Assembly (NCBI GenBank): GCA_021822485.1 | Contig: JAKAQP010000015.1 | Coordinates: 1-35,540, forward strand | Reading direction: 5' to 3' | Length of the DNA: 35,540 nt | From: a bacterium | GTDB taxonomy: Bacteria; SZUA-79; Acidulodesulfobacterales; Acidulodesulfobacteraceae | Part shown: one piece after another, positions 29,613 through 34,521 of the stretch | Position numbering within the stretch: the stretch's first letter is position 1 | Layout: each line of letters starts with the position of its first letter | Notes under the pieces: model-generated | What the model was told of the DNA's origin: nothing | Database searches by the model: none | Seen by the model: the letters and a program-made list of their open reading frames with translations, nothing else | Position numbers and translations under genes: made by a program

Positions 29613-29735
29613 TTTAAATTAAAAATATCGTCGCCTCTTCTTTTTTTATCGGTCTTTTTAGGATAAAGTCTTAGGGTTTCTTTTACCGCGAATAATACGC
29701 TTCAAGTTGTGTTAATTTATCGGGACGTTATAATT

Positions 29736-29797
29736 TGGTGCCGAAGGGGGGGAATCGAACCCCCATGGGATTGCTCCCGCCGGATTTTGAGTCCGGT
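29736..29797 (-). repeat. Left attachment-site copy: 3' fragment of tRNA-Leu
   Basis: This is a copy of the tRNA-Leu 3' portion from the anticodon stem through CCA. It differs from the intact gene only by seven instead of six consecutive G. It lacks the 5' acceptor strand and D arm, so it is not a functional tRNA. It marks the far end of the island. Confidence 0.9.
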
Positions 29798-29853
29798 TAT
29801 GATTTTTTATAAGTTATTAATTTTAAAGAGTATTTATGCTTATGAAAAATATG

Positions 29854-29874
29854 CCTATGTGAAAATCCGGCCAT
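29854..29874 (+). repeat. 21-nt repeat, left copy
   Basis: CCTATGTGAAAATC followed two bases later by GCCAT; the same motif occurs at 34331-34351, 19 of 21 bases identical and in the same orientation. Each copy lies 57-84 bases inside a tRNA-derived repeat. It may be an integrase or excisionase arm site. Confidence 0.6.
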
Positions 29875-29941
29875 CATTCAGCATACTCGCTATTTTTAAT
29901 TTTGTATAAAATGTCACGTCTGCCATTTTTTTATAGGCAAT

Positions 29942-30274
29942 TCATCTTCGTATGATTTCAACTATGCTTTCTATAATTTGATTGACCTTATTTTTCGTAA
30001 GATTACCGATTTTATAAAGGATAATATTGCCGTCGGCTGTAAATATTCTATTAGGTCTTATGTTGCTCGATTGTTTTAAATCTCCCGATTCAAAATCGCT
30101 TTTATTGATTGGAATGGCATAATTGTCTTTAACGGTTTGACTTGTTATTTGACAAAGGATTAAATCGTCACCGTCTAATTTTGAAATAACTAAGGCAGGT
30201 CGTCTTTTAGCCTGGCTTAAATCGGAAAAAGGAAAAGGAACTACAACGACATCTCCCTTTACAAATTCTGCCAT
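29942..30274 (-). CDS. MazF/PemK-family toxin
   Basis: PemK/MazF toxins are sequence-specific mRNA interferases. The 110-residue protein shows the fold's opening pattern VKGDVVVVPFPFSDLSQAKRRPALVIS (given here as VKGDVVVVPFPF and KRRPALVIS), then ILCQITSQ and the later SNIRPNRIFTADGN, where the arginine is usually catalytic or RNA-binding. Length is normal and the frame is intact. Its start overlaps the end of the antitoxin gene by 16 bases, the usual coupled order with antitoxin first. It lies just inside the left repeat of the island, close to the attachment site. RNA target cannot be predicted. Confidence 0.85.
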   Translation of the reverse strand: MAEFVKGDVVVVPFPFSDLSQAKRRPALVISKLDGDDLILCQITSQTVKDNYAIPINKSDFESGDLKQSSNIRPNRIFTADGNIILYKIGNLTKNKVNQIIESIVEIIRR

Positions 30275-30453
30275 GCTTTATCTTCCTCAGGCTTAAGCCA
30301 GTCTTTTTTAAGAGAGGATTCGCTTATAACGGTAATCGCAAGTCTTTCCTGAATAGATTTTGTTTTTAAAAAATTCATAAAATCTAAAACCTCGTTAAGA
30401 AAAGGCTCCGGGCAATGTTCTATTTCATTTAAAAGTAATTCTTTAGTACTCAT
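30259..30453 (-). CDS. Antitoxin for the MazF-like toxin (DUF2281-like)
   Basis: This 64-residue acidic protein has an N-terminal helical segment (NEIEHCPEPFLNEVLDFMNF) of the kind seen in DUF2281 antitoxins, and a C-terminus rich in charged residues (DWLKPEEDKAWQNL) that probably wraps the toxin. It begins after AAGGCG and ends inside the toxin start. The pairing with MazF rests on adjacency and overlap. A related fragment occurs at 33588-33755. Confidence 0.75.
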   Translation of the reverse strand: MSTKELLLNEIEHCPEPFLNEVLDFMNFLKTKSIQERLAITVISESSLKKDWLKPEEDKAWQNL

Positions 30454-30598
30454 AATTCGCCTTTTATCAAGTCGTCGAATATTGAATATATTTAATATAT
30501 TTTATAATACGTAAATATAAAAATCAAAACATAAATTAAATAACATAAATTACATATTTCGGTTTAAACGGACATTAATTCAAGTTAGTCGGCGACTT

Positions 30599-30697
30599 CT
30601 AACGTCCAAGATTATTTTTCGAGTTTTCTAATATGTTTTTTGTAGAAACGTTTCCTTTGAAGAATTCTATCATTACATCGGTATCGCATAATACCAC
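30599..30697 (-). pseudogene. Truncated VapC PIN-domain toxin
   Basis: A 32-codon frame starting at GTG reads VVLCDTDVMIEFFKGN, the classic N-terminus of a VapC PIN ribonuclease with its first catalytic aspartate, then stops at TAG. A normal VapC has about 130 residues, so the later acidic residues and the fold are missing; the DNA beyond (30454-30598) shows no continuation in another frame that I can recognise. It starts two bases after the VapB stop, the standard vapBC arrangement. It is therefore a dead toxin with its antitoxin left in place. Confidence 0.75.
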
Positions 30698-30698
30698 T

Positions 30699-30902
30699 TT
30701 AATAACCCCACGCCTTTTCCCTGATTTCTTCTTTTGTAAAAGTTCTTTTTTTCCATAATCCGAACATTTGGTTCATATCGAATGTTTTTTTCTTTTTCTC
30801 TATATTTTCGATATCTTTAATTTTTATATAGGGATTCTGGTTTAAAAAGTTTATGACGGTTTTTGCTTTTTCGATATCTTTTATTTCCAATACTATCTTC
30901 AT
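30699..30902 (-). CDS. VapB-type antitoxin (orphaned)
   Basis: The 67-residue protein has a basic, helical N-terminal half and the characteristic C-terminal end MFGLWKKRTFTKEEIREKAW, found in antitoxins that precede VapC toxins. AGGAG lies before the ATG, so translation is likely. The toxin partner downstream is truncated, leaving this as an orphan. It might still bind related toxins or its own promoter. Confidence 0.75.
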   Translation of the reverse strand: MKIVLEIKDIEKAKTVINFLNQNPYIKIKDIENIEKKKKTFDMNQMFGLWKKRTFTKEEIREKAWGY

Positions 30903-31059
30903 TATTTAAATCTCCTGTTTGTATTTATAATTCTCTAATTCTTTTTATATCTTATATTAAAAATTATGTGTATTATATTATTATTTTATCAGCTTTTTAA
31001 ATAAATTCCAAACTATAGAAAATTTTATAGAAAATTTTTTAAAGGATATGCTAAATACC

Positions 31060-31285
31060 TTATGCCTTGCTTGGTTTCTTAATCCCGAACTTTTTTGCCA
31101 GGAAGCTGATAAACTGTTTCGTATTTCCGATAGTCTTAGCCGCCCTCGTCATATTATAATCGTTCTCCTTAAGAATTTCTTCTACGCGCTCTTTATCAAT
31201 TCTGTCTTTTTGCCGGGTTTTGAAGCCTTATAGATGTCGTTCAAGTTTTTAACGAATAGGTAGGGTTCTTTTGGATTGTCGTTTC
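31060..31285 (-). pseudogene. Remnant of a Fis-type helix-turn-helix protein
   Basis: On the - strand, a stretch without a start codon reads ERVEEILKENDYNMTRAAKT and ends KKFGIKKPSKA then TAA (31060). This is the pattern of the Fis-like HTH at the C-terminus of NtrC-family and related regulators. An upstream piece in another frame (YLFVKNLNDIYKASKPGKK, up to about 31285) joins it if a one-base shift is made near 31200, so the gene appears both truncated and frameshifted. The + strand frame over the same bases (31048-31233) has no protein-like character. Confidence 0.5.
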
Positions 31286-31385
31286 TTCAAAAATGATAAA
31301 AATATATTAAAAACTTACTTTGAATCAAATAAATTTGATTTAATTTACGCGTTTGTTTTTTTTATTCCTTATTTTATATATTTTA

Positions 31386-31532
31386 GAACAAGCATTAGGC
31401 GATAGATATCCTAATGACGATGGCAGTATTGCTGATTATAGCGAGGACTCCATTCTTGCTAAAAAATATTGTGAAATTACCGGAGGCGTTAAAAAAACTA
31501 TTAATAATATTGGAGAGTTTATTATATTATAA
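31386..31532 (+). pseudogene. C-terminal fragment of an unknown gene
   Basis: An open stretch with no start codon reads EQALGDRYPNDDGSIADYSE, continues with AKKYCEITGGVKKTINNIGE, and ends at TAA. It has protein-like composition in surroundings that are otherwise AT-rich and empty, so I read it as the tail of a lost gene. No family is recognised. Confidence 0.35.
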
Positions 31533-31559
31533 GTTATAAATCTTTAGATATTTAATTTT

Positions 31560-31589
31560 TTGCAATTAAATCACAAAAAGTGGTATAAT
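31560..31589 (+). promoter_or_regulatory. rloA promoter
   Basis: TTGCAA at 31560-31565, an 18-base spacer, and TATAAT at 31584-31589 preceded by TG (extended -10) form a good sigma-70 promoter about 67 bases before the ATPase gene. Confidence 0.7.
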
Positions 31590-31656
31590 TAAATATATTT
31601 TTAATTATATTAAATTAAATTGAAGTTAATTAAATATTCAGTAAGAGATTAAATTT

Positions 31657-32904
31657 ATGTTAGTAGAATTTAAAGTTTCTAATTATCTTTCTATAAGCGA
31701 AGAACAGACTCTAAGCATGGTTGCGAACAATGCCGACAAAACATTGCTGAATCATATTAAAGAGTTTGATAAATACAAGATTAAAGTTCTAAGAACGGCT
31801 GGAATATTTGGACCGAATGCTTCCGGTAAAACCAATATGCTTAAAGCTATAGATTTTATGAAAAAATTAGTATTGTATTCTTCGCAAAATCTTCCCATTG
31901 CTCCGACAGGTGTTGTTCCGTTTAAATTTTTAAAGGGAAAAGATAATCGTTTATCAAAATTCGAAACGACTTTCATTCTTGACGATGGCGTTTTGTATTC
32001 ATACGGTTTCGAGTTGAGCGAAAAAGAAATATACAATGAATGGTTGCATTATTATCCAAAAAATCAGAAAAGAAATCTTTTCCAAAGAAGCAAAACTGAC
32101 GGATACAAATTTGGAAGCGATATGAAGGGGCGGAATAAATCTATAGCCGATATGACAAAAGAGAATTCATTATTTTTATCGGTTGCGGCGACGATGAACG
32201 AGGAGAAAGCGAAAAATATTTATGCTTTTTTTAATAACATTTCTCCTGTGCTTAATCAAATAGATTTATTAAGCAGTATAATTTTTATGAACAATATCGT
32301 TGAGTATTATAAGAATAAAGGCAAGGATAAGTTAATAAGTTTTTTACAAAAAGCGGATTTAGGGATTACCGATTTAGAAATTAAAACTAAAAATATAAGT
32401 AAAGGAGTTGAGGTTTTGACAAAAATCCTGCAAGATAAAGGTATTGAAATTAAAAGTTCAAATAAAGAATTAGATATGGATAATCTTATAGGCGATGAAA
32501 TCAATTTTACGCATGAATATGACGGTATTTCTGGTAAATTAACAATAAACGAGGAGTCAAGCGGAACGCAGAAACTATTCTATTTTTTGCCGTTTTTTAT
32601 CGAAAATAAAGGTATTATTTTAATCGATGAGTTAGAATCGTCAATGCATCCTCATTTAATAAATCTTTTATTAGATTTTTATTATGATATTTATCCCGAC
32701 TCGCAGCTTATTTTTAGCTCTCATAATTCCGATCTGTTAGATACGGAAAAGTTCCGCAGGGATGAAATCTGGTTTACGGAAAAAGAAAAAAACGGAAGTA
32801 CGGCCCTTTTTTCGTTAGATGATATAAAACCTAAGCCGAGATTAGAGGATGATATTAAAATACGCTACCTTTATGGTCAATATGGCGCAGTTCCTAATAT
32901 ATAA
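31657..32904 (+). CDS. RloA/AbiLi-type AAA ATPase, defence system
   Basis: This is an SMC/ABC-like ATPase (AAA_15/AAA_21) of the kind encoded beside RloB. Walker A is FGPNASGKTNMLKA (residues about 51-64), an ABC-type signature-like block is EESSGTQKLFYFLPF, Walker B is IILIDELESSMHP (about 319-331) and the late switch is LIFSSHNSDLLD. The N-terminus MLVEFKVSNYLSISEEQ is typical of the group. At 415 residues it is full length and undamaged. It has its own promoter and is followed after 33 bases by a RloB gene. Such pairs (RloAB, AbiL) are found in restriction loci and phage-resistance islands; abortive infection is the likely mode, inferred from family knowledge. Confidence 0.85.
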   Translation: MLVEFKVSNYLSISEEQTLSMVANNADKTLLNHIKEFDKYKIKVLRTAGIFGPNASGKTNMLKAIDFMKKLVLYSSQNLPIAPTGVVPFKFLKGKDNRLSKFETTFILDDGVLYSYGFELSEKEIYNEWLHYYPKNQKRNLFQRSKTDGYKFGSDMKGRNKSIADMTKENSLFLSVAATMNEEKAKNIYAFFNNISPVLNQIDLLSSIIFMNNIVEYYKNKGKDKLISFLQKADLGITDLEIKTKNISKGVEVLTKILQDKGIEIKSSNKELDMDNLIGDEINFTHEYDGISGKLTINEESSGTQKLFYFLPFFIENKGIILIDELESSMHPHLINLLLDFYYDIYPDSQLIFSSHNSDLLDTEKFRRDEIWFTEKEKNGSTALFSLDDIKPKPRLEDDIKIRYLYGQYGAVPNI

Positions 32905-32937
32905 ATATATGGCTAATTAATGGCATGAGAGCTAAAA

Positions 32938-33474
32938 ATGGTTAAATTTAAAAGATCAAGAAAAATACGGGAAAGCCATAGAATATTTTTAATAGTAACG
33001 GAGGGTAATATTGATGAAATATATTTTAAGCAATATAGAAAGCACAGAAATAATAGCGAATCAAAGGTTTATATAAACGTTAAAACTGCAGGACATGCTA
33101 CAGATCCTTATAATATAGTAAGATACGCCGTAAAAGAAAAAAACAAAATTAAAGACAATAATAACGTATTGGGCGGCATATTCTGTGTCTTTGATATTGA
33201 TATAGTCGTAAAAACAAAAGAAAAAACAGTAAAGGAAAATCTTTCTAAAGCTGAAAATTTAGGTAAGCGAAATAACATTAGTTTAATAACCTCGTTTCCC
33301 TGTTTCGAATTATGGCTTCTTTTGTATTTTGAAGACTATAACAAGCCCGGATTTGAATGTGAAACAGTTATAAAAGAATTACAAAAATTTTTATCATCTT
33401 ATTCTAAAAATAAAAAAGAATTTGACAAAATTAATTTTTTTGATAAATATTCGGATAAATTTGGTGATGATTAA
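32938..33474 (+). CDS. RloB/AbiLii-like protein, C-terminus lost by frameshift
   Basis: RloB proteins accompany RloA-type ATPases and have a Toprim-like core. Visible family features are RIFLIVTEGNIDEIYFKQY near the N-terminus (acidic E after VT), GIFCVFDIDIV with the paired aspartates, and SFPCFELWLLLYFEDY, the strongest RloB signature. The frame stops at 33474 after KFGDD. Reading on one frame back gives LNRAKKLKF and then YPYTKIYEIFEAIK, stopping at 33569, which looks like the normal RloB ending (alpha-helix plus an NPxT-like turn). One missing T in GATTA would explain this. The protein as encoded lacks about 30 residues; activity is uncertain. Confidence 0.8.
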   Translation: MVKFKRSRKIRESHRIFLIVTEGNIDEIYFKQYRKHRNNSESKVYINVKTAGHATDPYNIVRYAVKEKNKIKDNNNVLGGIFCVFDIDIVVKTKEKTVKENLSKAENLGKRNNISLITSFPCFELWLLLYFEDYNKPGFECETVIKELQKFLSSYSKNKKEFDKINFFDKYSDKFGDD

Positions 33475-33587
33475 ATCGTGCTAAAAAACTTAAATTCAAA
33501 AATAATTCAGATAATTTATTGAATTACCCCTATACCAAAATTTATGAAATATTTGAAGCAATTAAATAAATTATAGCAATTTATAAT

Positions 33588-33755
33588 GTATCATTAGGTT
33601 TTAAAAGAACGCCAATATTTTTAAAGACTAAATTAGATACGAATTTATCCGTCAAAATAATCAAAACCGTTAAAGCGCTTCCGGAAGACAAGCAGTTCGA
33701 GGTTCTCGACTTTATTATAAAAAAGGTATGCGATTTATTTTTTAATACTTTATGA
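33588..33755 (+). pseudogene. Antitoxin-like fragment
   Basis: A 55-codon open stretch without a start codon reads VKIIKTVKALPEDKQFEVLD, then FIIKK and a stop. The ALPEDKQFEVLDFI core is typical of DUF2281-type antitoxins, and resembles the antitoxin at 30259-30453. No toxin follows. Its stop overlaps the ATG of the phzF fragment. Confidence 0.5.
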
Positions 33756-33865
33756 AAATCAAACAATTTCAAATAGATGCATTTACAGGCCGTGTTTTCG
33801 GCGGCAATCCCGCCGCAGTCTGTCCTCTTAAGGGTTGGCCGAAAGACAACCTTCTTCAATATTAA
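33752..33865 (+). pseudogene. N-terminal fragment of a PhzF-family gene
   Basis: 37 codons from an ATG read QIDAFTGRVFGGNPAAVCPL and then KGWPKDNLLQ, the unmistakable N-terminus of PhzF-family epimerase/isomerase proteins (usually about 260-300 residues). The frame stops at 33865, exactly where the integrase fragment of the opposite strand begins. The rest of the gene is absent. This is a deletion remnant, not a functional gene. Confidence 0.8.
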
Positions 33866-34277
33866 TCGAGCGAAAATTTATCTCCGATTCTTTTTTTCCG
33901 CCGTTTTTAGGGTCGTTTAATATCTCCAACTTTCTTTCCGTCTGGTAATTTTTTATATCGAGGGTGGATATATCGTATAATTTTTTATTTTCTAAAAATG
34001 GAAGGAAATGCAAACTTGCTACGATTTTTCTCTCGATAGTTTTTTTAGTGTTGCTTCCGGCAATACTTTTCATGTAATTTTCCCATGCGGTTTTAAATAA
34101 AAGATTTTTATTTCTGGCGGTAGGCAGGCTGTAATTGTTTTTTATTACGTCGTTTTTGACCGATATTTCTATCTGTTCGGCAAGTTTTTTATCGGCAGTT
34201 CTGCAACTTTTCCGGTATCTTTTTCCCTCATGGACGAAGTCGTAGAAGTAATATTTGCCGTTTTTCACGATTGACAT
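33828..34277 (-). pseudogene. Truncated tyrosine integrase (N-terminal part)
   Basis: The protein starts MSIVKNGKYYFYDFVHEGKR, a short arm-type DNA-binding domain (residues about 1-50), followed by the SAM-like core-binding domain of phage integrases (about 60-130: LLFKTAWENYMKSI, LHFLPFLENKKLYDISTLDI). It ends around INFRSINIE, where integrases normally continue into the catalytic domain; the last dozen residues come from the antisense of the phzF fragment. The catalytic R, HxxR and Y residues are all missing. GAGGA precedes the ATG. Its position next to the tRNA-Leu and its direction into the island mark it as the element's own integrase. Confidence 0.85.
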
Positions 34278-34330
34278 GTCTTAAATCCTCATTTTCACCA
34301 GCGTTTTATTGACTTATATGTATTATATCA

Positions 34331-34351
34331 CCTATGTGAAAATCTCGCCAT
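34331..34351 (+). repeat. 21-nt repeat, right copy
   Basis: This is the partner of 29854-29874, 19 of 21 bases the same, in direct orientation. It sits between the integrase start and the tRNA, where arm-type or excisionase sites of integrative elements are often found. Confidence 0.6.
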
Positions 34352-34397
34352 AAAAAAGACAAAAATGGGTAAAAAATGGTCTTATTTGATTAAATAT

Positions 34398-34424
34398 GAA
34401 AAAGGTTTGGAACCGGAGAACCTT
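34398..34424 (-). terminator. Possible terminator of tRNA-Leu
   Basis: On the - strand a six-base-pair stem (AAGGTT/AACCTT, loop of 11) is followed by a short T-run, 11 bases after the tRNA CCA end. The stem is weak, so this is tentative. Confidence 0.3.
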
Positions 34425-34434
34425 ATAAAATATG

Positions 34435-34521
34435 TGGTGCCGAAGGGGGGAATCGAACCCCCATGGGATTGCTCCCGCCGGATTTTGAGTCCGGTGCGTC
34501 TACCAATTCCACCACTTCGGC
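34435..34521 (-). tRNA. tRNA-Leu (anticodon CAA)
   Basis: The - strand gives a complete class II tRNA: acceptor GCCGAAG/CTTCGGC, a D arm with GGTAGAC, an anticodon stem CCGGA/TCCGG with loop CTCAAAA (anticodon CAA, reading UUG). It also has a long variable arm (GGGA-gcaa-TCCC), a T arm GGGGG-TTCGATT-CCCCC, and an encoded CCA at 34435-34437. The long variable arm and anticodon agree on leucine. It is the only intact tRNA in the window. Its 3' end is the target of the island, and the second, incomplete copy lies at 29736-29797. Confidence 0.96.

What the first reader, a model, noticed from the sequence alone, without database searches (positions are those of the whole stretch)
31657..33569. RloA/RloB (AbiL-like) defence pair with a one-base frameshift in RloB
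The ATPase is complete with its own promoter, but RloB stops at 33474. The missing tail (RAKKLKF then YPYTKIYEIFEAIK) is readable one frame back to 33569. A single lost T restores it. Either the system has just died, the short form works, or the base is a sequencing error.
Basis: partly seen in the sequence, partly recalled or inferred. Interest (0 to 1): 0.6.

Follow-up and report, generated by a model that had tools for sequence, protein, structure and literature searches.

The report
Frameshift-broken RloAB/AbiL phage-defence pair
This is an ordinary two-gene bacterial anti-phage (AbiL-type) system whose toxic effector gene has very recently lost its conserved tail through a small frame-shifting change, inside a crumbling genomic island; related bacteria still carry the complete version.

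Summary
RloA (31657-32904, 415 aa) is intact. RloB (32938-33474) stops after 178 aa and its tail continues in the -1 frame to 33569. Two same-genus MAGs carry the same block at 97% DNA identity with a 210-aa RloB. At the break they read GATGCTTTAAATCG, the window GATGATTAAATCG: a substitution plus a one-base loss, not simply a lost T. All 28 other aligned homologues run on through the C-terminal region and none ends where the window's does. No usable slippery site and no second copy exist. About 19 kb of core genes in the window show no other private frameshift. 'Naturally short' and 'programmed frameshift' are essentially excluded; base-call error is unlikely but cannot be ruled out without reads.

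In relatives the pair follows a Type ISP restriction enzyme (in one also HerA and a methylase). Here it sits, with its promoter, in a tRNA-Leu(CAA) island beside truncated phzF and integrase genes, and was transferred between species. Best reading: recent inactivation of the TOPRIM-like toxic effector, its ATPase partner still intact. A probably dead member of a known system; low interest.

The parts
31560..31589 (+). candidate sigma-70-type promoter of rloAB (TTGCAA-18-TATAAT, TG before -10)
   Evidence: lies in the block shared with G002/G009, where -10 reads TACAAT; count of such sites not above shuffles
31657..32904 (+). rloA (AbiLi-like AAA_21/ABC-type ATPase, 415 aa), intact; Walker A GPNASGKT, signature-like ESSGTQK, Walker B IILIDE and H-loop SSHN read directly from the sequence
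   Evidence: PF13304 7e-36; AbiLi 1e-82; dN/dS 0.21-0.26 versus relatives
32938..33474 (+). frameshifted rloB (AbiLii-like), 178 aa instead of 210; keeps TEG..E, DxD and FELW motifs
   Evidence: (PF13707 positions 1-148 of 195)
33468..33474 (+). site of the frame-shifting change (CT in relatives, A here; net minus one base) and the premature stop TAA 33472-33474
33471..33569 (+). severed rloB tail (32 codons + stop), now in the -1 frame; identical to relatives
33754..33860 (+). 5' fragment of a phzF gene, cut at the junction with the integrase
   Evidence: full 263-aa PhzF in L006; PF02567 positions 1-29 only
33828..34277 (-). phage-type integrase fragment: N-terminal part only, catalytic domain missing; homologous part 33856-34277
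   Evidence: PF14659; a longer copy, itself frameshifted, in G005
34435..34521 (-). tRNA-Leu(CAA), integration site of the island
34432..34495 (+). tRNA-side copy of the flanking direct repeat (3' end of tRNA-Leu)
   Evidence: 51 nt 100%, extended to about 64 nt by an overlapping 19-nt family with one mismatch
29733..29797 (+). far copy of the direct repeat (other end of the island)

Best explanation
An AbiL-type (RloA/RloB) abortive-infection pair, spread horizontally between congeneric species, in which the effector gene rloB has been inactivated by a very recent small indel. In the intact pair, the RloA ATPase is inferred to hold the RloB TOPRIM-like nuclease in check and to release it on phage infection; RloB then stops growth by cutting nucleic acid, possibly RNA as AriB of PARIS does. 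In the window the loss of 32 conserved C-terminal residues most likely destroys RloB folding or activity, so the system no longer defends. Losing the toxic partner first is the safe order. Shown: the truncation, full-length relatives, tail conservation, the transfer and the decayed island. Inferred: loss of function, regulator/toxin roles in this organism, nuclease target.
For: Full-length 210-aa RloB, 95-96% identical, in two same-genus MAGs. The only difference from G002 in about 221 nt around the site is the frame-shifting change, and the 99-nt tail is unmutated, so the event is young. In 386 genomes nearly every RloB runs to profile position 194-195; exceptions are the window, two remnants (G084, G021), one divergent copy with its own tail (G313) and weak or split hits. 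dN/dS 0.17-0.26 shows the pair was under selection until recently. No second rloB or rloA in the genome. Core genes over about 19 kb show no uncompensated frameshift versus G014. Island context is decayed: truncated integrase and phzF. RloB homologues are toxic effectors: C. algidicarnis RloB-type:AAA pair validated as toxin-antitoxin (PMC10440598); F. nucleatum AbiLii toxic in E. coli (PMC3985639).
Against: The catalytic-looking residues (E22/E27, D86/D88, E124) all remain in the 178-aa product. No assay or structure shows the tail is essential; the structure model was useless (pLDDT 39). Read support cannot be inspected. For F. nucleatum AbiL the ATPase did not neutralise the toxin (PMC3985639), so the regulator role of RloA is not general.
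Confidence: 0.74

Rival explanations
1. Base-call or assembly error: the real gene is full length and the system is intact.
For: The genome is a 95-contig draft; relatives' contigs with the block have low coverage (3.3 and 7.8 in their titles), typical of this kind of data; the tail is perfectly preserved.
Against: The change is compound (a substitution next to a one-base loss), which a single indel error would not give; no uncompensated private frameshift in about 19 kb of core genes versus G014.
Confidence: 0.14
2. The short RloB is functional, perhaps weaker, so the pair still works.
For: TOPRIM-like acidic residues and the FELW motif are retained; RloA and its promoter are intact.
Against: None of 28 aligned homologues lacks the C-terminal region; profile positions 149-195 are missing; the change is too recent for selection on the short form to be seen.
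Confidence: 0.1
3. Programmed -1 frameshifting makes both a short and a full-length form.
For: The T_TTT_TTT heptamer at 33435-33441 is slippery in principle and the tail lies in the -1 frame.
Against: The -1 frame has stops at 33441, 33444, 33456, 33465 and 33468, so a slip could only occur on the last codon before TAA, where GAT has no usable re-pairing; relatives with the same heptamer have one continuous frame.
Confidence: 0.01

Closest known systems
AbiL (AbiLi/AbiLii) of Lactococcus lactis
   Same: Two adjacent genes, AAA_21-type ATPase then RloB-domain protein; PADLOC AbiLi 1e-82 and AbiLii 1e-15.
   Different: Here RloB lacks its last 32 residues; context is a chromosomal tRNA island, not a plasmid.
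RloA/RloB linked to restriction-modification loci
   Same: In relatives the pair follows a Type ISP restriction enzyme, and in G009 also HerA, an unidentified ORF and an adenine methylase.
   Different: In the window the pair has been separated from all of these and keeps only its promoter and a phzF scrap.
AAA(D29):RloB(D44) toxin-antitoxin pair of Clostridium algidicarnis (PMC10440598)
   Same: Same two domains; there RloB is the toxin and the ATPase neutralises it.
   Different: Toxin broken here; no neutralisation tested.
PARIS (AriA/AriB)
   Same: ABC-type ATPase plus separate TOPRIM-type effector; RloA matches AriA models (4e-36).
   Different: RloB belongs to PF13707; no AriB model was matched.

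Membership tests
AbiL / RloAB | AAA_21-type ATPase (AbiLi/RloA) | tested here: met
   PF13304 7.3e-36; PADLOC AbiLi 1.1e-82
AbiL / RloAB | RloB-domain partner directly downstream | tested here: met
   PF13707 8.3e-28; 33-nt gap, same strand
AbiL / RloAB | complete RloB domain | tested here: not met
   profile positions 1-148 of 195 in the window; 1-195 in relatives. It is therefore filed as a broken member, not a working one
AbiL / RloAB | abortive infection / phage resistance | not testable with these tools
   no experiment possible; predicted absent
PARIS (AriAB) | AriB-type TOPRIM effector | tested here: not met
   RloB hits only AbiLii in PADLOC
Functional toxin-antitoxin pair | toxin neutralised by its neighbour | not testable with these tools
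   shown only for a C. algidicarnis homologue in PMC10440598

The most novel reading that the evidence does not exclude
RloA is retained as a stand-alone guardian: with its own toxin gone, the intact ATPase protects the cell from RloB delivered by incoming restriction/RloAB islands of related species, like an anti-addiction antitoxin.
Probability: 0.05. Interest if true: 0.5.

Novelty: new member of a known kind. Interest (0 to 1): 0.2.

Why it matters
It is a clean snapshot of how an abortive-infection system dies: effector first, ATPase still intact, only one change in about 221 nt around the site. It gives a natural truncation that could test whether the conserved RloB C-terminal motif (NPST-V-LV-L) is needed for toxicity. 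It also warns that profile-based calls would count this locus as an AbiL system although its effector is broken. No principle is overturned.

Tried and rejected
Profile search of solved structures: no RloB structure (one hit at E 0.59). AlphaFold model of the full-length relative with 3 sequences: pLDDT 39, not used and not fold-searched. Programmed frameshift: rejected by stops in the -1 frame. Naturally short homologue: G313 looked like one (148 of 195 positions) but has its own C-terminal TNVSELDLIL tail. A nearby template for the changed bases: an 11-nt direct match GATTAAATCGT exists at 30158 but is too weak to argue gene conversion. Type I RM neighbourhood recalled for Rlo genes: in relatives the neighbour is Type ISP instead.

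Full report
What is there. RloA (31657-32904) and RloB (32938-33474) are adjacent on the + strand. RloA is a 415-aa AAA_21-type ATPase (PF13304 7.3e-36; PADLOC AbiLi 1.1e-82). RloB matches PF13707 only from position 1 to 148 of 195 and stops after KFGDD. Read one base back, the sequence continues LNRAKKLKFKNNSDNLLNYPYTKIYEIFEAIK and stops at 33569.

Comparison with relatives. Of 61 genomes searched first, two others of the same genus, G002 (JAJYDX010000055.1) and G009 (JAJZJD010000014.1), carry rloB at 95-96% identity with a continuous 210-aa frame covering PF13707 1-195. The whole block 31537-33860 is 97.3% identical to G002. At the break the relatives read GATGCTTTAAATCG and the window GATGATTAAATCG: one substitution and one base fewer. 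The 114 nt before and 107 nt after are identical to G002, and the 17 other substitutions in rloB all lie further upstream. The lesion is thus young. dN/dS is 0.21-0.26 for RloA and 0.17-0.22 for the first 176 codons of RloB, so the pair was selected as protein until recently.

Is the tail needed? A search of 386 genomes found PF13707 in 38; nearly all copies reach profile position 194-195. The exceptions over the cut-off are the window, G084 (internal stops), G021 (remnant) and G313 (divergent, own tail); G216 is split into two pieces, the second reaching 195. In an alignment of 29 sequences every other protein extends through this region, and nearly all carry A..A..L followed by an NPST-V-LV-L-like motif. 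Acidic residues expected of a TOPRIM-like site lie in the part that remains. Loss of function is therefore likely but inferred.

Error, or real? Over about 19 kb of core genes aligned to G014 there is no uncompensated frameshift, and against G009, G011 and G004 non-triplet gaps are clustered so that they mostly compensate, or lie at gene ends. A compound change is not the usual single-indel error. Reads are not available, so about 14% is left for error. Programmed frameshifting is ruled out in practice by five stops in the -1 frame between 33441 and 33468.

Context. The pair lies in a 4.7-kb island between direct repeats of about 64 nt, one being the 3' end of tRNA-Leu(CAA) at 34435-34521. Next to the tRNA is an integrase truncated at about 33856, fused to a phzF truncated at 33860; G002 has the complete 263-aa PhzF directly after rloB. 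A deletion joining the two genes would explain this (inference). In G002 and G009 rloAB follows the end of a Type ISP restriction enzyme (PF18135 in G009); in G009, whose contig is longer, an unidentified ORF, HerA and an adenine methylase precede it. Core genes of the window's genome are only about 71-78% identical to G002, against 97% for rloAB: horizontal transfer, direction not determined. The pair is present in only 3 of 16 genomes of the genus and once in this genome.

Mechanism. In L. lactis AbiL, AbiLii is described as the TOPRIM_OLD toxic effector; the RloB-type toxin of C. algidicarnis is neutralised by its AAA partner, and HHpred relates RloB to OLD_TOPRIM domains (PMC10440598). F. 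nucleatum AbiLii was toxic in E. coli but was not neutralised by AbiLi (PMC3985639). In PARIS the separate TOPRIM effector AriB cleaves tRNA (PMC12409363, title and abstract). By analogy the intact pair is a phage-triggered growth-arrest system. With RloB broken, the window's copy is most likely inert.

Verdict. It is a recent pseudogenisation of a known defence system and of modest interest.

Noticed in passing
window 29733-34495: 4.7-kb tRNA-Leu(CAA) island made largely of scraps: a PemK/DUF2281 toxin-antitoxin pair (29942-30453) looks intact; integrase and phzF fragments and a Fis-type HTH scrap (31063-31227 -) do not.
   Followed up: partly
window 30602-30905 (-): Short antitoxin-like ORF followed by CDTDVMIEFFKGN, which looks like the start of a PIN (VapC) toxin that is cut short; no Pfam hit, so by eye only.
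   Followed up: partly
L007 3388-12315 and L006 2-1126: In relatives rloAB sits downstream of a 1559-aa Type ISP restriction enzyme with a fused Peptidase_S24-like C-terminus; in L007 a HerA ATPase, an unidentified 443-aa ORF and an adenine methylase precede it.
   Followed up: partly
L011 1747-2780 (G005): The longer copy of the same island integrase in G005 is itself split by a frameshift.
   Followed up: no
G009 contigs C22 and C81: This MAG holds two versions of the same core region (91% and 77% identical to the window), so it probably mixes two species.
   Followed up: partly
window 31537-33860 versus L006: Substitutions are unevenly spread: 14 in 300 nt around the start of rloB, none in 32137-32436 and only one in about 220 nt around the break, suggesting mosaic ancestry.
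   Followed up: partly
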